Positions 5,208 to 49,369 of a stretch of DNA of 64,000 nt are shown one piece after another. Both the position numbers and the translations under genes were made by a program. Position 1 is the first letter of the stretch; each line of letters starts with the position of its first letter. The stretch is from positions 1-64,000 of the forward strand of contig JAYKXP010000152.1 in the NCBI GenBank assembly GCA_037176845.1, written 5' to 3'. The notes below the pieces were generated by a model, which saw only the letters and a program-made list of their open reading frames with translations, did no database searches and was not told where the DNA came from. This DNA comes from Paramarasmius palmivorus. Its lineage: Eukaryota > Basidiomycota > Agaricomycetes > Agaricales > Marasmiaceae.

Positions 5208-6351
5208 GTCTAAGGCTTGGAACGACGAATGCTCTTCTGGATACCCCCTACTCCGTCGTACACATCACACATTCCACTCATACATCTCCTGTATCATGAA
5301 CCACCACTACTCGTGCTACATCATACATGTATATTTATTCTATCCCATGCTCTCATTGCCTACGTTTGTAGATTACACCCTTGATAGTCATTGTTACCGA
5401 ACCATGAATCATAGCTTGCGTTATTACCAAACTTGAATACAATATCGTCGAGACTAGAGGCTGTGATACAGAACCATGCATGTACTACAATAAGTATCCC
5501 CGACAATCGAGTCTAATACGGCCGCCAGCGTCTACAGGTTTCCTTCTGACACCGAGTCACAAGCCTGAACGTTCCCTGTTCTCTGCTTGTTTGGCTCGAA
5601 CCGAACAAATCGGTACCGTCAACACCAGAAGCTGCATCTCCGACTCCGCTCCACTTTCATGAATCGCCTCAGTCGTGTGAAGATGCTGGAGGAAAGGCCC
5701 GTAAAGGTGCTCGTGCAAGCCCTGGACTTTAGACATTGGAGCCCTGAACGCTCGACAAGTCTGCCAAAGACTCGAAGACTACAACACCGACAGGGCCCAA
5801 GGCTTCCATTCGGCTCGGGAGAGCGATGGTAGAGGTTCTCGTGTGAGGACATTGGGGACGAGACGAGGTACGAGGCGCAGCGTCAAGCATAAGTTAAGGC
5901 TGAAGCCAGGTTCGCGGGTATGGGATTGGGGAAATAGATAATATGATGGTTCGAAGGTATGAGGGCGAGGGCTGGATTCGATGTTGATCATTGCATACTG
6001 AATGTTCGCGCTAGGATGAAAACACGCGGAAATCTCGGTGGTATAGATGGGCCTGGAAAACAGGGAAGGAAGGCGCAAAATGGTAGTGTTGTGCTAATGA
6101 AAGATCAGCGAGCTATTCACGTTTTGGCTCTAGGGTTACTCTCACCTGGAGTTGCGGAAATCTCTCGTCTTGCCTCCGACTCCAGAAATGCTAACACTAT
6201 CTCCCAGCACTGAGACCCGACTTCGAAGGGCGACATCACAGGACCAGGAACCACGACCAGCCGCAATGTACGATGGATCCAACACCTGCACCTTCCCATC
6301 TCTGTATCTCAACACCTCGCGCGCCTCACGCTCCGATGCCTTCAATGTGGG
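5208..6351. other. Intergenic, duplicated at 12267-13531
   Basis: No gene seen. Much of this 3' flank is clearly homologous to the sequence after the decayed BRI3-like copy (for example the stretches after 5208 and 12267, and 5860-6180 against 12960-13320). This marks it as part of the segmental duplication. Confidence 0.6.
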
Positions 6352-9300
6352 TCAAGCATAGAGCACCATCATGGCGAAGTTCAAGCACAGCGCAAGGAAT
6401 ACGGACAATCCCAGACCGAAAATCAAACCAATCACGCTCGGGTCCCTTCCATCGATCAATTCGTGTTCGTCGATGTTGTCGTCTTTCCTATCCGCCTCCT
6501 CTTCAGGCGGATGAGGAACTGTGTCGTCAAGAGGAACCAATGAGCATCGCTCCAAGGTGTTGTCTTTGGCCACGTCGCTTCTAGCGTCAACGTCTGCCAT
6601 CGAATCCTCGAGAAGTATAGCCGAGTCGTGATCATCTGCACCTGTGCGCCGGGTATCATCCTCCACGGATTCGCCTTCTTGCACCTTCTCGTCTACTGCA
6701 CCTGCTCGAGCTAATAGGCTGGGCAATTCAGCCAAATAAGACCCTGGATTGGGCAGTGGTTCAATGAACAAGTTGGCTAGGACTTCTCCGTCCAGTATAT
6801 CATATGGATCGGCCCGGGGTGGTGGTGGTGGTGGCGGTGGTGTGCATGGAAAAGGTTCCAGTCCTATCTCCAGACGGCGTTCATTGACCAACCTTTTTAG
6901 AGCGTACAGGTCATTTTCCTGGAACATGGGATTAGTGTAAGCCGGAAAGAGTAATTCTAGCCTTCACCTTGGATGGCATACCGAAAACACTTCGGTAGGT
7001 GCCTTTCCGGAAATCCTTTAACAGGGTATTTCGACGGCGCCTGTCTAACCTTCCATCTCGTCTGTACTCGCTTAATTTATGACAGCTTTTAAGAGAGTCA
7101 AGTAGCTGGGCTATCGTCGTGGATTTTTCAGGGGGAACAGTGATCGATAACCAGGACAAGGGCAGAGGATGGTCAGCTGGAAGAACATATATGATATCGT
7201 TAACGTTCCAGTCTGGTCGGAACTCGTCGATCCCAACAATTTCATTCCAAACCCAATTGGAGTATCTGGTATAGATCGCCTCTTCCAGATATCCCATTGC
7301 CTGCCATAACCGGAAAGGATCTCCACAGGGTGACGCAATGCAGAAGGACCGTAAAAATGACTCCATCTTCTCAATCAATATATGAGGAACTCTGCTACTA
7401 AGTGACTTTGTGAGCCAGATCAGTTTCAGTGTGTCAGTAAAGATGATCACTTTACCTTAGCCCACTGAATTATATCTGACCACGGAACCCAAAGCCATAG
7501 AGCATTGTCCTCATTCAAGTACCCTGTAGCAAAGGTATATGGATCAAAGTCATTGAAGGCTGTCATTAGCTCAGCACTGAGAGATGTCAGTGCCTGAGCC
7601 ACTCTAAACACGGAAAATGGCCACCAGCAGTACTTCCCAGTGGCATAATCTGGGAAAGAACAGGGATTGGGAAAACATGACCAGAGTTCTTGCGAGTAGG
7701 ATGAGAGATAGCGGAGAAGGCATTGAGCAACCAAGTCACGATAGTCCGACTCGTAATATTGTACTACATGGAAGTCCCTTGAACGCTTGTAGTCCAATAG
7801 AAACTCAGAGAAGGATGCATGAGGGATACATATCTCCGCCTTGTCATTATAAGGCACCTGTATGACTGCATGTAGTTTGTAAAGTAGGCTTCGTACCTTT
7901 CCAGGTTTGAAGTTAAACAGCACTGCAATATGCTGCGGAGAGCATGAAATTTTTATGACAGCTCCCACCACTGACCCGGGCCTAATCCATAGATCGAGAT
8001 TCACACTTCTGGGAATGGTGAGAATGAGGCGCACGACCCTTTGAACTTCATCCCAATGGGGACACACTCTCAGAATCTGATGATAAAGAAGGTCCAAATC
8101 AGGGTACGGAGACTCCGGAAGGTCGTCAGCCCTAATCCGAAGAATATCTCCTAAACGCTCCTCTGGATCGTCGTCGTCACTCTCAAGGTACTTTATGACG
8201 GTGACAGCGAAAATGAATTGTCCACAGGCTCGCTCAACAAGCTCCCAGATTATATCTTCGCCTGGCCATGATGTATTGAGATGAATCAGCGCGGGATGCG
8301 TACCCTGCAGCTTTGCGAAGTGTTGGTGGAGGTATGTAGCTATATCTTGGCTGGATTCAGCTGAGTCTCCAATGGAGAGGCGGCGTAGGAAGGAAAGGAA
8401 TGATACATGATCGAAAGCTCGACAGATTCGAGGCTCTGGACGGCTGGCGATAAGAAATATAAGCCGACAACATGGCAAGACCTCGCGAATCATCGCTATA
8501 AGTCTCTCCTGCGATGGTATCAGGACGCACTCATCGAGGCCATCGATGACCACCACATTGGGAAGAGTGTTCCATGCGTCCGGCTCGATTTTGGAGCAGG
8601 GCTCGAGGATGAGCTTTCGAAATTGATTCTCGGAAGTGGTATGGAAGATTTTGGGGTCTGAATGAATAGCTTCGATGATCGATGGGCCAAGAACCTCTCG
8701 AAGGGGCTTTGACTTGAGGAATTGATAGACAATGGTTGCAACAAACGGATCCAGTTTGTCTCGTGTGGGGTCATTGCGAGAAAAGAAGAAGCTTGCCGCC
8801 AGTCGCGGGTGGGTCCCTTCTGCCAACGGACAAGCGAATCTTTCCGATATATTCTGCGTGATGGCCGATTTGCCTACTCCGGCATACCCGTGTACCCAAC
8901 AGACTCGCACCATCGACAAGTCTATGATCTCCTGATGGGATCTATCTAAAATCTCCGTCGGAGTGCCTGCACGGCTGATGGGTAGACCAGAGCCAAAAGA
9001 CTGAGGACTCTGGTGTGTACTGTCCATTGAGTCATCCAAGGCACTTGGTGCATCAATTGGCATCGTCGACCTATCCATGATCTCCCGATCGGAGCTGTCT
9101 AATGTCTCTGGAGCGGCTGGAAGGCAGTTCGACGGAGGAAAATGTTGTTCTGAAGGTCGTTCATCCCTATGGTCCACTGGCTGGTTTCGGTCTTTTCTTC
9201 CCTCCATGATCCACCGATCGAGGCTTGTTAATATTTCCGTTCGAGTGCCTGGAAGACAGTTGGGCGGAGGAAACCGCTGTTCTGAGTTATAGAATGCGTT

Positions 9301-9490
9301 CGACGCAGCATAATTGCCCACAAATTTGAGGACTTCGTATTTGAAAACGGTGAGAAAGGGTAATGAACCAGGATAATGCATGCTTACTGGGGTCAGACGT
9401 ATTCGTGATATTGATTTGGTCCCTCCCGACCGAATTGAATATACCATCGTTGATCGCAAAGTCTTTGGCATTGGCAAAGAAGTCCGACAT
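6352..9490 (-). CDS. NACHT-domain NTPase (fungal NLR-like) with C-terminal membrane anchor
   Basis: NLR-like STAND NTPase. Exon 1 (9388-9490) starts MSDFFANAKDF and contains VGRDQINIT, the short leader common in agaricomycete NACHT proteins. An intron (gtaagc, 9387) leads to the large exon with the P-loop GYAGVGKSAI, Walker B VVVIDGLDEC, then FLIASRPEPRICRAF and an alpha-helical C-terminal part. Further introns lead to the MESFLRSFCIASP exon (ATG about 7370) and the last exon from about 6911 (ENDLYALKRLV, a poly-proline run, an acidic stretch, and a final hydrophobic segment at 6352-6440 likely to be a TM helix). The open frame extending to 9591 only reads through exon 1 in another frame. Before the P-loop, the linker CLPGTRTEIL...WIM is present about three times, against once in the 16 kb paralogue. 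The usual acceptor of intron 1 is mutated (caaat); an AAG 9 bp on would keep the frame. No effector or repeat domain is recognised. Confidence 0.75.
8930..9275 (-). repeat. In-frame tandem expansion in the pre-NACHT linker
   Basis: Three diverged in-frame copies of a 100-150 bp unit encode variants of (FPP)xNCLPxxxxTEILxxxDRxIMDR between the leader and the P-loop. Copies lie around 9190-9275, 9075-9170 and 8930-8990. The paralogue at 13.5-16.1 kb carries a single unit (FPPPDCLPGTRTEILADLE). Copy-number variation in this linker is therefore recent relative to the gene duplication. Confidence 0.6.
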
Positions 9491-11018
9491 CCTCCGGGGA
9501 GAGGTGTGTACGAATGTCGATGGGGGAGAATAGAAGGCGGTCCTAGCAGCAGAGATTCCATTGGCAGGAGTATAAAAGTATCACACCTCATGTTTCTCGC
9601 CTGGAACCCTCATTGCAGGTACTGTGCTGTTCAGTAACTGGCCTGAGGCCACGCAGTCTACACGCAGTAGATCTGACATCCGGAACCCTGCAAATGAGGC
9701 CTCGTTTGGACGCCTGACAGGACACGAGGTAAAAGCATGGAAGGATGCTGTTCGATCACAAAAAGAACAGGTGGAACTCGTGGAGATCAGTACCAGCAGC
9801 CATGTCCACGTTAACGGCGGCACTGGATTCTGACTGTACCACACGGGAAAAGACGCGCCAAAGGTCGCAGAATGTCGAGTCCGATATGGGCGCGATCGAA
9901 GTGCCAGGACTAGGAGGATATGCAGTAATGGGAAGCAATCGATGCCTGGTTCTGATTCCGAATCCTCTTGCACCGCATCCAGTCCTTCGACGCTGCAGTG
10001 ACAGCGGACTCGGATGCTGGACGAACAGTGAAGATATGACATGGCGGCATGAAAGCAGAAGAAAGGTGCAGGGAAAGCTCTGAGTCACACTCTGAGGCTT
10101 GGAGCTGCGGATAATAGGTCCATAAGCCTGTCATAGCATTTGATAGTCGGAGTAATAATAGCACGCAGATGTGACTCTGTAGCTCGAGGAGGCTCGAGCT
10201 GTGCTTTGTACCGCTGGGCACAGGTGCACCTCCACGCACAGATGGGTCCTGAGATCGTGAAATTGTATCGTTGGTAGACTTTGGATGATCGCCGAATGGT
10301 TCAAACGTGAGATAAGGAAACCCTGACGCAACGTGGCCCTGAAGTGTAATATTCTATGAGAGCGTACACATTCCCTAGAGTAGTAATTAATGAGGAAGGC
10401 CCGTAGAGTTGGATTTGAGTACTCACTCGTTAATTACACCAAGCTGAAGTGTAGGCCGCACCGTTGACCGCTAATTTTCTCAGCTGATTCAACGACGCTA
10501 CAACCCTGTCACTGTGCCCTGCTCCTGCTACGTCCTTCTTTGTCTCGTAGCACCGAATCCAGATTCCGCATTCGTTCGTCCGCAACCGGTCGCGTGCATC
10601 AGATCCCGTTCTTGCCTTGCAGTCTGAGCTGAAGAGTCGGACTTGCCAGCAACAGTTGGTGCTTATGACCGAAAAGTCGGTGATACAGCAACGACTGGGG
10701 AGACGGGAGGTGCGGAGAATGTCGCCGGGTTGTCAATGGGAGAACCAAAAAAAAATGTATAACTTGACGCTTCGAGCTAGCCAGGCTCTGGCATGCGAGC
10801 TATTGCAATATTCATACGCCATCTAAGTCAAAGCCTGGTAAGCAAAAGGGCTTTCAAGAAGATTTGTAAAGACGAACGATTTAGTAAAATTTCTTGTCCC
10901 AGCTAGAGCGACAATACCGAACGAAATGATACATGTCTCTCGAAGGAATCCACAAGTTCGAAGTCGTAGGGAGGCAGAAACTTTGCTATTGACGTGGAAG
11001 CGTGGATATGGTATCGTA
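9491..11018. other. Intergenic, no supported gene
   Basis: About 1.5 kb between the start of the first NACHT gene and the small minus-strand gene. Several frames of 70-150 codons overlap on opposite strands but none has recognisable motifs or paired splice signals. Confidence 0.45.
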
Positions 11019-13531: not shown

Positions 13532-16050
13532 TCATTGATTAGCCCGTGCTCGTTGATGTCGAAGTTTCCACCACCTCTTCAGGCACACGAGCAACCGCAT
13601 CCGAGGAGTCGTCTGTACATCCCTTGTGACCATGTTAGCGGGGAGTGTCCGACGAGATGAGTTGACCCCTCTATCAGAGTATATGTCCAAGCTGGGCAGT
13701 GGTGTCCATGGGAAAGGTATCATTTCCATCTCCTTGCGGCGTTCTGCAACAAATTTTTTTAGAGCATACAAGTCGTTTTTCTGGAGAATATCATTAATAT
13801 AAGCACAGAAGACCAGATATAACACTTGCCTTGTCTGGAGACAAGCAAATACTGTTGTAGGTGTCTTCCCGGATATCCTTGACCAAGGCGTCTTGCTTGC
13901 AGCCTTTGAGAGAGTCGAGTAGCTGAGCTATTGGCTCGAACTTTTCACGGGTGACAATGACAGATAACCAAGACGGAGGTAGAGGTAGATCGGCTGGAAG
14001 AACATATACGACATCACATGAGTTCAATGGAAGGGATTCATTGGAGTAGATCCCAAGAATTCTGTTCCAAAGCAGCTGATTGCAATTGGCATATGTGACC
14101 TCTTCCATATATCCCATCGCCTTCCATAACCGCGGAGATGTTCTACAGGGTGATGCAATGCAGAACGACAGTGAAAATAGCTCCATCTTCCTGATAAACT
14201 GATGTGGAACTCCGCTGCCCAGTGACTTTGCGTGTCAGATCAGCCAGGTCAATTCCGGTGCATTCATAAATGACCTTACCTTGGCCCACTGAATGATGTC
14301 TGTCCATGGTAGCCAATTATTTGAATACTCGTCCGAATTCAAGTACCCCGTGGCAAAGGTATAGGGATCAAACCTGTTTAAGGCTGCCGTCAGCTCAGCG
14401 CTGATGGATCTCAGTGAATGAGCCACACCAAACACGTTAAGTTGGATCCTCCTTGTGAAATAAGGTCGGCTAGCATCCTCGAATTGCTTTGGAGAAGGAC
14501 AGGAATTGGGAAAACGTGACCAGAATACTTGTGAGTACAATGAAAGAGAGCAGAGAAGGGATTGTGTAAAGAGGTCATGATGTTCCGACTTTGTATGTCG
14601 TATTATGTGGTATTCCCTCGATCGTTTATGGTCTAGTAGAAATTCGGAGAAGGAGGCATGTGGAATGCATATCTCAGCTCCGGCATCCTGAGGCACTTCG
14701 ATGACTGCATGTAGTTTGAACAAAAGGCTCTGCACCTTTCCAGGTTTGACTTGAAGCATCGCAGCAATGCACTCCGCATTGCTTGAATGGCCTATGGTGG
14801 TCGTAATAGAACCGCGCCTGTTCCAGAAACTGATATTGCCAATAGTGGGAATGGTGATCATTAGGCACAGGACTTTTTTGACTTCGTTCCAATGGGGGCA
14901 CGTCTTCAAAATCTGATGATAAAGAAGGTCCAAATCGGGATACGGAGACTCCGGAAGATCCTCCGCCCTGATACGAAGAATGTTTGTCAGACGCTCCATT
15001 GGATCGTCGTCGTCACTCGCGAGGTACTTCATGACGGTGACAGCAAAGATGAATTGTCCACTGGCCCGCTCAACAAGCTTCCAGATTACATCTTCACTTG
15101 GCCATGAAGTGTTGAGATGACGCAGTGCATGATGCGCGTCCTGGAGCCGTGCGAACTGTTGGTGGAAATACGTAGCTATATCTCGAGTAGACTCGGCAGA
15201 GTCTCCAATCTGGAGACGGCGAAGGTTGGAGGGAAGGAATGATGCGTGGTCGAAAGCTCGACAGATTCGGGGCTCCGGCCGACTGGCAACAAGAAATACG
15301 ATGCGACAATTCGGCAGTGCCTCACGAATCATTGCTATAAGTCTCTCCTGCGATGGTATCAGGATACATTCGTCGAGGCCGTCGATGACCACCACATTCG
15401 GAAGAGTTGCCCATACACCCGGATCGACTTTGGAGCAGGGTTCAAGAATTAGTCTCCGAAACTGATTCTCGGAGGCGGTGTGGAAAATCTTGGGGTCTGA
15501 GCGAATAGCCTTGATGATCAATGGGCCGAGAACCTCTCTGAGAGGCTCTGACCTGAGGAATTGGTACACAATGGTCGCGACGAATGGATCCAACTTGTCT
15601 CGGGTGGCGTCGTTGCGAGAAAAGAAGAAGCTTGCCGCCAGTCGTGGGTGCGTCCCTTCTGCCAACGGAGATGCGAACTTTTCTGATAAATTCTGCATGA
15701 TGGCTGATTTGCCCACTCCGACTCGTCCCTGTATCCAATATGCGCGCGTATTCGTAGACCGATCAGCAAACCAATTTTCTAGGTCTGCTAATATCTCAGT
15801 TCGAGTACCCGGAAGGCAGTCAGGCGGAGGAAACCGTTGTTCGGAATTATAAAAGGCATTTGGTGCGACATATCTCCCCAAAAGTTCGAGGAATTTGTCT
15901 TTGAAAAGGGTGAGAGGCCATAATGAACCAAGATGATGACTACTTACTGGGATCAGTCGTATTCGTGATATTGATCTGGTCCCCCCCAACCGAGTTGAAT
16001 GTACCGTCGTTGATGGAAAAGTATCTGGCGTTGGCAAGTATGTCCGACAT
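13532..16050 (-). CDS. NACHT-domain NTPase, C-terminally truncated paralogue
   Basis: Exon 1 (15948-16050) encodes MSDILANARYF and VGGDQINIT. The intron at 15899-15947 (gtaagt...caaag) joins in phase to the main exon, with P-loop GRVGVGKSAI, Walker B VVVIDGLDEC, FLVASRPEPRICRAF and the helical C-terminal part ending DIIQWAK. The MELFSLSFCIASP exon (from 14186) and the NDLYALKKFV exon follow; the intron between them has a GC donor (AAG|gcaagt, about 13833). The last exon diverges after about 50 codons and ends at 13532 without the acidic stretch and membrane helix of the 6.4-9.5 kb copy, so the product may be soluble. The frame extending to 16103 reads the intron and is not the start. The retroelement ends only about 136 bp upstream of the ATG, so its promoter was probably displaced or altered. 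Confidence 0.7.
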
Positions 16051-16185
16051 CGTCTGGGGTTTGGGCAAAGGTATGCACGAGTGTCGATACTGCGGGGCTT
16101 CAAGCTTCATGAGTCATGGAGTCACGACAATGACATTGACACCGCTCGCTGTCCAGCACGTGATTTACATAGCCTTCAGTGCAGT

Positions 16186-17037: not shown

Positions 17038-18249
17038 TTAGGTTCCAACTGGTGCAGGAGCACTGGACGTGGTTGTAGGAGTAAGATGCGCCAAAATCTG
17101 TGCGTGCTCACGCAGGTATGTTGAGAATGAGTTACTTGTCCAACGGCCCTTTTCTTTCACAACATCCATTGGGATGCCCCGCAGCAGCAGCTCCAGGGTG
17201 GAGCCGATTCGGAGACCATGCGGAGGAATGAATTTGAGGCCAGCTGCCTTAAAAACTCTCTTGAGTTGACGTACAAGGCACTCGTACGTTAAAGGTTTAT
17301 GTTTGGAGCCGTCGCGGTAAGCAAAGAGTGGCCCGTCATGTGGCGGGTCGTTAACTCGTAGGTGGTTCTTGAGGGAGACGTCGGGATCTGAGGACAGACC
17401 CGGTTGTGGAGACCAGCAGACATTCTCTCCATGGGGAGAACATTTGGTCTTGGGTAGCCAGAGGTTCGTTACTGGGAGGTCGTTGGGGTCGTGGGTGAAT
17501 GTTACGTTTGATCTTTTGACATGAATTTTCGGGTCGAAGCTGCTTAGTGTTTCCACGGTGAACTCTCCAGGCCTGCTCGTGGCCCAGAAAGTAGTGGTGA
17601 CACATGAATGGCAGGCGGCGTCTAGCGGAACGTTGAGATCAAAGTGGGGAAGAATCTTGTCAAATACAGCAGGGGTGTAAGGGTCTCGAAGGTCCTTTAT
17701 GCTGGTGGGAGGTGACATTGCGTCGGCAGCTTTTAGCAGTGCGTTGATTGTGGGTTGGTGCATGTTCCAAGCACATCCGTGCAGGAGATGCCAGGCACGT
17801 ATGCCTGAAACGTAATTCGATATCGTTTTTCCAGAGATGACCCCTGCAAAGGCCGCAATAAACGTTTCGATGAGTTCCGATGTTGCGGGAGCTCTGCTTT
17901 CCTCAGGTATGAACCTTGAGTCACAGAAGACGTGGAAGTTGAGTAGGCCTGAGCCGTAGAGCTCAGTTGTGCCCTTTGACCAGGCTGCCGACATGACGTC
18001 AAAGACTCTTCGGAGATCAGTGGAGTTGTTGGTATCGCTTCGAGATGATATTGGGCGCCAATGCAACAGGCGTTCACGTGCTAGACATTCAGGTCGAAGT
18101 GGGTGTATGGATGAGAGAGTAGGTTGGGGGTTCAGTTCGAGACATGGTGATGGAGAGTTCTCAGAGGTGGATATAGGTGGCCTCATGTACGGGTGAAAAC
18201 GCCGATTTCTTGTTGATATGCTCCCGTTACCACCACGACGTTTTACCAT
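17038..18249 (-). CDS. Tyrosine recombinase of the Ngaro-like element
   Basis: 403-residue phage-integrase-fold recombinase that integrates the circular cDNA. Catalytic signature of the family: Arg226 in ATSRPGEF, the His344-x-x-Arg347 box in PPHGLRIGST, Trp370 in KGRWTS, and nucleophile Tyr378 in FSTYLREH. The N-terminal part (SELIETFIAAF, ISNYVSGIRAWH) fits a SAM-like core-binding domain. I chose the ATG at 18249 (MVKRRGGNG) because it overlaps the end of the RT-RNase H frame by 23 nt, as is common in compact retroelements. The frame is open upstream to 18387, but that part only shadows the RT-RNase H C-terminus. All catalytic residues are present. Confidence 0.85.
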   Translation of the reverse strand: MVKRRGGNGSISTRNRRFHPYMRPPISTSENSPSPCLELNPQPTLSSIHPLRPECLARERLLHWRPISSRSDTNNSTDLRRVFDVMSAAWSKGTTELYGSGLLNFHVFCDSRFIPEESRAPATSELIETFIAAFAGVISGKTISNYVSGIRAWHLLHGCAWNMHQPTINALLKAADAMSPPTSIKDLRDPYTPAVFDKILPHFDLNVPLDAACHSCVTTTFWATSRPGEFTVETLSSFDPKIHVKRSNVTFTHDPNDLPVTNLWLPKTKCSPHGENVCWSPQPGLSSDPDVSLKNHLRVNDPPHDGPLFAYRDGSKHKPLTYECLVRQLKRVFKAAGLKFIPPHGLRIGSTLELLLRGIPMDVVKEKGRWTSNSFSTYLREHAQILAHLTPTTTSSAPAPVGT

Positions 18250-20268
18250 CGTAGAGGTCAAAGGCGTCTTGATCAAAGATGAGGTTTGCGTTTTCTCGCT
18301 CTGCACGTTGCTGTTGGGAGAGCTGGTGTTTGGGAATAGTGTCGTTGAAGGAGAAGGATGGTGCACTGTTGTTGTTGAAGTCAACAATGAACAGTTTGAG
18401 TTCTGATGGAATTGGGATGTGAGGAAGAAGGAGGTTGTCTGGTGGGTAGATGCCTCTGGATGGCTTGTCTGCTGGATTCTCAGTGGTGTTGACGTATCTG
18501 TGAAGGAGCATTAGTACGGTTACAGTGCCGGGGTTTGGATGAAGAGTCACCTGGTATGGAAGGTGAATTGGTTGTTGAGGTTCGCAAGGTGCCTGTGGAT
18601 GCGCTTGAATACTTTGTTGACATGGTTGCTTCGGCTCCTGAAGTTCCACCAGCCTTCGACAACTCCAATGTTGTCTCCATAGACTTTGATATGATCGACG
18701 TCTTGGTTGAGAGCAGTGATGGTATAAACCAGGAATTCGAAACCGATTGCCTCGGCCCATCCGATGTCTCGACCTGCGCAGTTCCAGCCCGGGAGAAGAG
18801 TCCATGCCCGCCAGAATTTCCCAATGGTGATGGCGACACCGACCCCGGAACTTGCGTCCCAGAAGGCGTTGATGTCAAACACCTCCACCGGTCTAGGAAT
18901 GGATCTGGAGATCTCTGGTCCTGAGAGTACGCCGATCCACCAATCGATGTCCTCGTCAGTTCCACGGGGCGGTCGTCGGGGGATGTGTGGAGTGTCATGA
19001 AAAATACCCAGCATGGATTCGAGGGTGGTGATGTAGGCACATCCTTCAGGTCTGAGGTTGGATGTGTGGAGGAGTTTGCCGTATAGTTTCCGAACTTCCT
19101 CAAGTTCATGAGTAGGGCGAGTCTTCCATGCTTTGGTGCATTCCAGATACTTCGCTTGTTTCTTCGGGGGTAGAGACACGACCTGCGTTTGTACATTCCA
19201 GCAGTAGCCAGTGTAGGGGGCGGAGGCAGCAAAGTGATGATCTTTGTCTCGTTCGCATGGGATTCCAAGTTCATCCCATAAGCGGTCGATGTCATCGAAG
19301 TTGTAGGTGAATCGTAGGTCATCTTCAGAGCGGGGAGATGATTTGGATAGATCTTTGATGGGGAACTGCATGTCTTCGTCAAATTCTTCTGTGCGGCCGT
19401 CAGGCAGAATGTCTCCACCGTACCAGTACCGGCCGCCTGTGTGGTGACGGCCTCCTCGAGCAAGGATGCGTTTGCGGCATAGGGCGCGTTGGGCATTGAA
19501 CTCCTTGAGATAGAGGATGAGAATTCGTATGAAGAGGTGATCATCGACCCATTTGGAAAGCGGGCCAATGCCTTGACTGCGAGCAATGTCAGCGCCAGCA
19601 TCACCCACCATGCCAAAGGTACCTGCTCCAGATCGTACTCCGAAGCAGGTTGAGAAGTCAAGGTCGAAACTTGTTTCGGATGTGCGAATGACGGCCCCAG
19701 CCCATTGGGACGGGTGTAGTGGGCACCTGCGATATGCTTCGGATATGTCGCGGCACGCCGCTTCAGAACCTGGTGGTAGGCGACAGCAGAGATGTGATAC
19801 GGCTTCGAATGTTCCCCAGGTGCAAGGGAAATTGTTTGAATTGATAGCGGAGTTGATGGAGGAGATTCCGGAAATGGGTTGATAGGGGTATGAGTAGTTC
19901 TGGACCAGCCTGAGTTTAGAGGGGTTGTGAGGTTTTGGGACGAGAGAAATGGGAGAAGATTGAAAAGGTCCAACGAGGAATTCCACCTCATCACGTGATA
20001 ATGGACCGAGCCAACGATGGGAAGCTCGTTCGTGAGCAATGGTGCGAGCCAGCTCCTGATGGTGTTGGCTGATGGTGTTGCTGTTAGGGGGTGTGAAGGT
20101 GTTGCTGATAGTGGGGATGTGCAGATTAAAACCAAAGTGTATGGAGTGGGTAAGATGAGGGTAACGGTTGGTGAGATTTGCTTGGCGTAAGAGGCGTTCC
20201 CATGATTCTGGTATGAGGGTGGTGACTGCTTTAAGCTTTCTCTGCTCGAGAGCACTCTTGAGCGCCAT
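18227..20268 (-). CDS. Reverse transcriptase-RNase H of the Ngaro-like element
   Basis: About 662 residues with the intron removed. Numbered from the ATG at 20268: RT motif LVPKP...LRLVQN near 109-123, motif A with catalytic Asp174 in CRDISEAYR, motif B FGVRSGAGTFG (209-219), motif C WVDD with Asp242/243. RNase H follows: Asp471 (FWDASSG), Glu506 (WAEAIGFE), Asp532 (VYGDN) and the terminal ENPADKPSRG motif with Asp583. The last motif is reached only by removing a 53-nt intron (18498-18550; donor gtgact, branch ctaat, acceptor cacag), which turns HTR-stop into HTR-YVNTTENPAD. The frame is open upstream to 20664, but that part overlaps Gag zinc-knuckle sequence, so the ATG at 20268, overlapping the Gag stop by 38 nt, is preferred. 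All catalytic acidic residues are intact. Confidence 0.8.
18498..18550 (-). other. Spliceosomal intron inside the RNase H domain
   Basis: 53-nt GT-AG intron with a ctaat branch site. Removing it restores the conserved final RNase H motif in frame. Confidence 0.7.
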
Positions 20269-48785: not shown

Positions 48786-48896
48786 TATAAGTAATGCCCT
48801 ATTTGACTAGTAAGTGCATCATTACCTTACTGCCCTTGTACTGGTATCTCTTTCTTGTGGTCATCAGACATCCCAGCATTTTTCATTTAGACGACT

Positions 48897-49369
48897 ATGC
48901 GAATCTCTACCGTTGCCTCTGTAACCATGTTCTTCCTGCATGCCAGTGGGCTCCCAATGACTATGGTACGTTCACTCGCGGGAGAATCCTCGTAATCGAC
49001 GTTCTTGATCTGAGATTCCTTGTGCAGAATACGCCTGCGCAGCCTGAAAACAGGAAGTCGAACTTCCGTACTGAAGACGTCGAGGTGCGGCCGTCATCGT
49101 CCTCAATTCCTCAAAAAACTACTAAAGCCATTGTGTCTTAGCTTGACAATACCTCCGCCTCTAAAACAGAAGACATCTTCGCCGTTCGTCTAGGGCCACC
49201 GTACTGGGCACGCCACGAGGGGCATACTGTTCGTCCAGGGCCCCCGTATTGGAAACGTGATTCCGGGGATGACGCCACGGAAGGTTCTAAGGACAGTCAC
49301 GTACGTCCTGGCCCACCTTATTGGAAACGCACAGGCGAAGGCCGTAGCATCGTTGATCTCCCAGAGTAA
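48897..49369 (+). CDS. Secreted repeat-peptide precursor with Lys-Arg (Kex2-type) sites
   Basis: Three exons, 117 residues, found by splicing by eye because no single frame is long. Exon 1 (48897-48965) encodes MRISTVASVTMFFLHASG, a signal peptide. The intron 48966-49027 (gtacgt...gtgcag) leads to exon 2 (49028-49084), then the intron 49085-49141 (gtgcgg, branch actaaag, tcttag) to exon 3 (49142-49369), all in phase 0. Exon 3 carries three copies of a decapeptide at residues 57-66, 72-81 and 96-105: VRLGPPYWAR, VRPGPPYWKR and VRPGPPYWKR. The spacers are acidic and polar. The last two copies end in KR, the Kex2 consensus, and differ at six synonymous positions but no amino acid, implying selection on the peptide. 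The layout is that of fungal Kex2-processed repeat precursors (alpha-factor-like pheromones or dikaritin-type RiPPs). A 5'-UTR intron (48810-48890, gtaagt...tttag) is possible. The acyltransferase at 49.6 kb is convergent, 270 bp away. Confidence 0.72.
49184..49330 (+). repeat. Three VR(P/L)GPPYW-coding repeats
   Basis: 30-nt units at 49184-49213, 49229-49258 and 49301-49330, separated by 15 and 42 nt. They are coding repeats of the precursor gene. Confidence 0.85.

What the first reader, a model, noticed from the sequence alone, without database searches (positions are those of the whole stretch)
48897..49369. Hidden three-exon gene for a secreted repeat peptide (VRPGPPYW) with Lys-Arg processing sites
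Seen: a signal peptide exon, two short introns with consensus ends, and a last exon with three spaced copies of VR(P/L)GPPYW-(K/A)R. Copies 2 and 3 differ at six synonymous sites and no amino acid, so the peptide, not the DNA, is conserved. Copy 1 has lost its KR (now AR) and a proline. Known: fungal Kex2-processed repeat precursors yield alpha-factor-type pheromones or cyclic dikaritin RiPPs. The core has adjacent Tyr and Trp, residues used in RiPP side-chain crosslinks, and a (K/R)PGxP-like turn reminiscent of ascomycete alpha-factor, which basidiomycetes are not known to use. Because each exon is tiny, standard gene callers would miss it. I do not recognise this peptide.
Basis: partly seen in the sequence, partly recalled or inferred. 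Interest (0 to 1): 0.9.

Follow-up and report, generated by a model that had tools for sequence, protein, structure and literature searches.

The report
Fungal secreted repeat-peptide gene (VRPGPPYW)
A fungus carries a small gene for a secreted protein that is probably cut into copies of one short peptide ending in tryptophan, a type of peptide precursor already known from mushrooms, here with a core sequence for which we found no earlier report.

Summary
Three in-frame copies of VR(P/L)GPPYW-(K/A)R lie in one open frame at 49142-49369, behind a plausible signal-peptide exon and a good first intron. Chance is excluded: 1 of 17,735 simulated ORFs had even one repeated 6-mer. In the other haplotype (contig C95) all three cores are VRPGPPYW, and the six minimal changes among them are all synonymous (p about 6e-4). 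There the TAG inside 'intron 2' reads CAG, so intron 2 is likely but unsettled; the rival is a nonsense mutation in the window allele. Best reading: a Kex2-processed repeat protein (KEP) giving linear peptides ending in -PPYW. KEPs giving Trp-ended peptides are published for agaricomycetes (GPPAPSW, QMRPPSW, SGVAADW). The alpha-factor reading lacks Ste13 dipeptides, and no STE2 match was found (no positive control). The dikaritin reading lacks a nearby UstYa gene (nearest match 52 kb). Relatives in other fungi could not be searched. Verdict: new member of a known kind. In passing: a UstYa-adjacent 16-repeat secreted protein gene in the same genome, perhaps the more interesting find.

The parts
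48786..48790 (+). TATAA, possible core promoter element about 110 bp before the ATG
   Evidence: sequence; a 5-base motif is weak evidence
48897..48965 (+). exon 1: MRISTVASVTMFFLHASGLPMTM, plausible signal peptide
   Evidence: hydropathy peak at residues 6-14; in-frame stop just upstream; codon score not coding-like, 52nd-53rd percentile of non-coding frames
48966..49027 (+). intron 1, 62 nt, GTACGT...TGCAG, phase 0
   Evidence: donor hexamer equal to 2 of 8 introns of my model of another gene of this genome; low codon score in the exon-1 frame
49028..49084 (+). exon 2: NTPAQPENRKSNFRTEDVE, pro-region
   Evidence: codon score at the 96th percentile of non-coding frames
49085..49141 (+). candidate intron 2, 57 nt, GTGCGG...CTTAG, phase 0; holds an in-frame TAG at 49139-49141 (CAG in the C95 allele)
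   Evidence: weak donor, may instead be coding in the C95 allele
49142..49369 (+). exon 3: 75 codons plus stop, three peptide copies
   Evidence: codon score at the 98th-99th percentile of non-coding frames
49184..49213 (+). copy 1, VRLGPPYWAR (VRPGPPYWAR in C95)
49229..49258 (+). copy 2, VRPGPPYWKR
49301..49330 (+). copy 3, VRPGPPYWKR

Best explanation
This is the gene of a small Kex2-processed repeat protein (KEP) of a probably basidiomycete fungus. The signal peptide sends the precursor into the secretory pathway. Kex2 cuts after the two Lys-Arg sites, and perhaps less well after the single Arg of copy 1. A Kex1-type carboxypeptidase trims the basic residues, leaving linear peptides that end in -VRPGPPYW, such as HE(G/E)HTVRPGPPYW and DSGDDATEGSKDSHVRPGPPYW, possibly trimmed further from the N-terminal side. 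The conserved -VRPGPPYW is the active part and probably acts outside the cell, on the fungus itself or on its neighbours. Shown: the repeats, the two alleles, the peptide-level constraint among the copies, kexin-like loci in the genome. Inferred: expression, splicing, cleavage, linearity and target.
For: Three in-frame copies, a signal-like exon and two KR sites. The six minimal core changes among the three C95 copies are all synonymous, p about 5.8e-4 at 29% synonymous opportunity. Exons 2 and 3 score as coding. Two haplotypes keep the frame of exon 3, with 0 differences in 148 bases at 49222-49369. Two P_proprotein (kexin-type) matches on C58, one beside a kexin-like HGTRCAG motif. Published KEPs of agaricomycetes give linear peptides ending in Trp: GPPAPSW and DDDPEGPPAPSW in C. 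cinerea culture fluid, SGVAADW in Pleurotus fruiting bodies, QMRPPSW and QYKAPSW from a C. cinerea KEP expressed in Pichia (PMC9769878).
Against: Only two copies are followed by dibasic sites, so by my reading the published screens (at least three similar fragments or repetitions) would not call it; I did not run those pipelines. The window allele breaks one core (Pro to Leu). The four exon differences between the alleles are all nonsynonymous, which shows no constraint outside the cores. Exon 1 has no coding-like codon score. The gene is less diverged than its flanks (7 of 473 bases, Fisher p 0.012), but 1908 of 5725 windows of that length are as low or lower. GT-AG flexibility is large: 135 two-intron models keep the repeat frame. 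No transcript, peptide or relative in another species could be checked.
Confidence: 0.75

Rival explanations
1. Same kind of gene but with two exons: 'intron 2' is coding, as the C95 allele can be read through it, and the window allele carries a premature stop (TAG at 49139), so the window allele makes no peptide. This rival concerns the gene model and overlaps with the best explanation.
For: C95 has CAG in place of TAG and a 192-codon open frame. The donor GTGCGG is weak: 8 of 8 introns of my model of another gene here begin GTA. The window allele also carries the Pro-to-Leu change in copy 1.
Against: 57 nt, phase 0 and a YAG acceptor in both alleles fit an ordinary fungal intron; the T/C difference sits at the -3 base of the acceptor, where both are usual (recalled). 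The codon score of the stretch is ambiguous: 86th percentile of non-coding frames in the window, 75th in C95.
Confidence: 0.35
2. Alpha-factor-like peptide hormone sensed by a GPCR, its C-terminal half resembling that of the ascomycete pheromone.
For: VRPGPPYW is the only one of 3943 8-mers before KR or RR in the DNA at hand that reaches its own score against the end of yeast alpha-factor (that sequence recalled; the comparison is post hoc and the pool includes this locus). Alpha-pheromone-like KEPs of basidiomycetes are published.
Against: No XA/XP dipeptides follow the KR sites. STE2: 0 matches in the genome, no positive control; STE3: 36 match rows, on C22, C64 and C100, none on C152 or C95.
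Confidence: 0.12
3. Dikaritin-like RiPP: Tyr and Trp of the core are crosslinked by a UstYa-type oxidase.
For: Adjacent Tyr-Trp; 36 UstYa match rows in the genome, one on the same contig at C152:101185.
Against: That match is about 52 kb away and no other listed match lies on C152 or C95 (counts there are lower bounds, and the part of C95 held beyond the gene is only 3.9 kb). Of 29 frames of the window given to Pfam, 5 had a match over cut-off (MBOAT_2, NPHP3_N in two, F-box-like, TM_ErbB1), none a known RiPP enzyme. In a published survey 6.1% of basidiomycete KEPs had the gene within reach.
Confidence: 0.07
4. Chance open frame with a local repeat, not a gene.
For: No transcript data; exon 1 has no coding-like codon score; allele differences in the exons are all nonsynonymous.
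Against: C95 cores differ only synonymously; such repeats are nearly absent from simulated ORFs.
Confidence: 0.04

Closest known systems
Agaricomycete KEPs giving Trp-ended peptides (Coprinopsis cinerea KEPs 490115 and 447393, Pleurotus KEP 1091723; PMC9769878)
   Same: Secreted precursor cut by Kex2; peptide ends in Trp; proline-rich ends -PPSW and -APSW beside -PPYW; an acidic N-terminal stretch as in DDDPEGPPAPSW
   Different: Core VRPGPPYW found in 0 papers of the library searched; no Ste13 motif, which KEPs 490115 and 1091723 have; GPPAPSW comes from a non-repeated C-terminus, here the core is repeated; only two dibasic sites after cores; unequal spacers
Ascomycete alpha-factor precursors
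   Same: Secretory precursor with repeated cores before KR; (K/R)PGxPx(Y/W) end (yeast sequence recalled)
   Different: No Ste13 XA/XP motif, no counterpart of the N-terminal half, no STE2 match found
Dikaritins (ustiloxin, phomopsin, asperipin-2a)
   Same: KEP architecture, Tyr in the core
   Different: No UstYa match within 50 kb in the sequence held
Ustilago maydis Rep1
   Same: Basidiomycete Kex2-processed repeat protein without Ste13 motif
   Different: Rep1 peptides are 37 aa and attached to hyphae; here 13-22 aa are predicted

Membership tests
Kex2-processed repeat protein (KEP) | N-terminal signal peptide | tested here: inconclusive
   hydropathy only, no SignalP
Kex2-processed repeat protein (KEP) | repeated short motif, at least three copies | tested here: met
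   three copies
Kex2-processed repeat protein (KEP) | Kex2 dibasic sites separating the repeats (strict screens: three or more similar fragments) | tested here: inconclusive
   KR after copies 2 and 3, AR after copy 1 in both alleles; in-silico cutting leaves two core-bearing fragments, so the general architecture is met and the strict rule is not
Kex2-processed repeat protein (KEP) | Kex2 protease in the same genome | tested here: met
   two P_proprotein matches on C58; HGTRCAG in L033, not seen in the 3.3 kb held of L032
alpha-factor-type pheromone | Ste13 XA/XP dipeptides after KR | tested here: not met
   DS and TG follow the two KR sites, HE follows AR
alpha-factor-type pheromone | STE2 receptor | tested here: inconclusive
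   0 matches in the genome, nothing rang in the controls either
dikaritin RiPP | UstYa-family gene in the cluster | tested here: not met
   nearest of 36 match rows is about 52 kb away
dikaritin RiPP | crosslinked or otherwise modified core | not testable with these tools
   needs mass spectrometry

The most novel reading that the evidence does not exclude
VRPGPPYW is an alpha-factor-like peptide hormone of a basidiomycete, read by a receptor other than STE2, whose C-terminal half keeps the (K/R)PGxPx(aromatic) turn of the ascomycete pheromone.
Probability: 0.08. Interest if true: 0.75.

Novelty: new member of a known kind. Interest (0 to 1): 0.35.

Why it matters
It adds a KEP with a peptide conserved at the protein level and a core not met before to a class whose functions are mostly unknown, and shows how such genes can fall below published screens (tiny exons, one Kex2 site degenerate). 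If the alpha-factor resemblance were functional, it would bear on the open question of what alpha-pheromone-like precursors do in basidiomycetes.

Tried and rejected
Loose DNA pattern over the genome: useless, 3583 and 3549 matches against 2816 and 2793 for the reversed pattern. Third protein match in the genome (C31:117860, E 1.9): rejected, it lies antisense to a CDQYGGC-repeat protein. Single-exon 191-aa reading of the C95 frame from the ATG at 48792: not the main model, because its extra part scores at the 58th (window) to 67th (C95) percentile of non-coding frames and its ATG lies right behind the TATAA. Low haplotype divergence as evidence of constraint: not used. Viral-contig scan for relatives: 1 stretch matched a pattern, none confirmed. 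Text searches: the core, 0 papers; MiSSP8 with DWRR, 0; DUF3328 with Agaricomycetes and precursor peptide since 2021, 0; a search since 2022 listed 4 papers, of which by title and abstract only the KEP paper already read bears on the point. Pfam on the 117-aa protein: two matches far below cut-off. A repeat scan of all 38 sequences then held (265,276 bases, overlapping loci counted twice) gave no other repeat ORF built like this one with Lys-Arg after each copy; it did bring up the C26 repeat gene.

Full report
What is there. The window is C152:1-64000 of a 68.3-Mb, 393-contig genome. The spliced protein has 117 residues. Enumerating GT-AG pairs gave 135 two-intron models that keep the repeat frame, so the mere existence of a model is no evidence; what supports this one is the GTACGT donor, the signal-like exon and the codon scores of exons 2 and 3.

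Chance and constraint. Of 939 stop-to-stop frames of at least 40 aa in the window, 3 contain a repeated 6-mer with four or more different residues: this one and two overlapping frames of one stretch at 20.2-20.8 kb. In a first-order Markov simulation 1 of 17,735 did. The three cores of the C95 allele need at least six changes and all are synonymous; with 29% synonymous opportunity p is about 5.8e-4. This counts sites as independent and the copies as unordered. The window allele breaks the pattern once (Pro to Leu in copy 1).

Second haplotype. The protein search of the genome scored three candidates: the window, C95:187066-187290 (97% identical) and a chance match. C95:131000-190994 was compared with the window plus the next 10 kb; the six matches longer than 300 bp are all colinear, from 28 to 53 kb of the window, 78% to 95% identical, 95% at 46.8-53.1 kb, where C95 ends. 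No such match was seen for the first 28 kb of the window. I take C95 as the other haplotype rather than a dispersed paralogue. In the gene the alleles differ at 7 of 473 bases: Pro/Ser in exon 1, one base in intron 1, Arg/His in exon 2, two bases in candidate intron 2, Leu/Pro in copy 1, Gly/Glu in a spacer. All four exon differences are nonsynonymous, so the alleles show no constraint on leader and spacers. There is no difference in the 148 bases 49222-49369, which hold copies 2 and 3. The gene is less diverged than its flanks (Fisher p 0.012), but 1908 of 5725 windows of that length are as low or lower, so I do not lean on it.

Intron 2. In C95 the in-frame TAG at 49139 is CAG and the frame runs open through the candidate intron. 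Either the intron is real and the base is the -3 position of a YAG acceptor, or the stretch is coding and the window allele is truncated. The donor GTGCGG is weak: 8 of 8 introns in my model of a repeat gene elsewhere in this genome start GTA. Codon scores, trained on 31 long ORFs (12,037 codons, some perhaps of mobile elements), put the stretch at the 86th percentile of non-coding frames in the window and the 75th in C95; exon 2 at the 96th, exon 3 at the 98th to 99th, exon 1 at the 52nd to 53rd. I put about 0.6 on splicing. The 191-aa single-exon reading of C95 is less likely: its extra part scores at the 58th to 67th percentile.

Mechanism. Two P_proprotein matches lie on C58, one beside a kexin-like HGTRCAG motif (the motif's link to kexins is recalled). 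Cutting at dibasic sites in silico gives two core-bearing fragments ending WKR. Copy 1 ends in AR, a poorer site; products suggesting single-Arg cleavage were reported for C. cinerea KEPs expressed in Pichia. After Kex1 trimming the products would end in Trp. That Kex2 does not cut before proline, which would keep VR attached to PGPPYW, is recalled.

Comparison. The class is known: KEPs were defined in a survey of 250 protein catalogues and extended to 1461 assemblies (PMC6339444: passages and sections 9 and 15; PMC7329392: passages), and most KEP types are unique at least at genus level. PMC9769878 (abstract and sections 3, 5-8, 10, 14; [quoted passage not shown] cinerea culture fluid; SGTGEASAADW in shiitake; SGVAADW and longer forms in Pleurotus; QMRPPSW and QYKAPSW from KEP 490115 expressed in Pichia. 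Knockouts of six C. cinerea KEP genes had no apparent phenotype in axenic culture. VRPGPPYW resembles these in its Trp end and prolines; kinship by descent was not tested. The core occurs in 0 papers of the open-access library searched; supplements were not searched.

Alpha-factor and dikaritin readings. No XA/XP follows the KR sites. STE2 gave 0 matches, with no positive control; STE3 gave 36 match rows on C22, C64 and C100. VRPGPPYW alone of 3943 8-mers before KR/RR reached its score against the recalled yeast alpha-factor end, a post hoc test whose pool includes this locus. UstYa gave 36 match rows, the nearest at C152:101185, about 52 kb away. Of 30 sequences given to Pfam (29 frames of the window and the spliced protein), 5 had a match over cut-off: MBOAT_2 just downstream on the other strand, NPHP3_N in two (one also NACHT), F-box-like, and TM_ErbB1. 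Shorter frames and those not sampled were not scanned.

Limits. The protein database was off, G000 has no relatives held, and the collections at hand are bacterial, archaeal, viral or plasmid, so orthologues in related fungi were not sought beyond one scan of viral contigs.

Noticed in passing
L036 (G000:C26:482900-492800) 7110-8533 +: My nine-exon model (no transcript) gives a 329-aa secreted-looking protein with 16 GVDxDNxxWxLK repeats (12 exact GVDLDNKQWGLK, all 12 with different DNA) and only one dibasic site, divergent from UstYa-family matches, the nearest about 0.9 kb away; may be the precursor of a UstYa-linked RiPP with spacers not of the Kex2 type. All 9 matches of part of it in the genome lie in this gene; 0 papers in the library hold its core.
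   Followed up: partly
L011 (G000:C31:116360-119527) about 1037-1684 +: Small secreted-looking protein with many C(D/E)(Q/E)YG(G/S)C repeats.
   Followed up: no
L026 (G000:C152:94700-104654) about 6015-6782 +: UstYa-like frame on the same contig, about 52 kb from the finding.
   Followed up: no
window 7450-9609 and 14238-16106, - strand: Two long frames with NPHP3_N/NACHT-type NTPase domains, NLR-like.
   Followed up: no
window 17041-18510, - strand: 490-aa frame with a below-cut-off Phage_integrase match, possibly a tyrosine-recombinase element.
   Followed up: no
G000 contigs C95 and C152: Two haplotypes seem to be held here; the colinear matches are separated by unaligned stretches of unequal length between 28 and 47 kb of the window.
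   Followed up: partly
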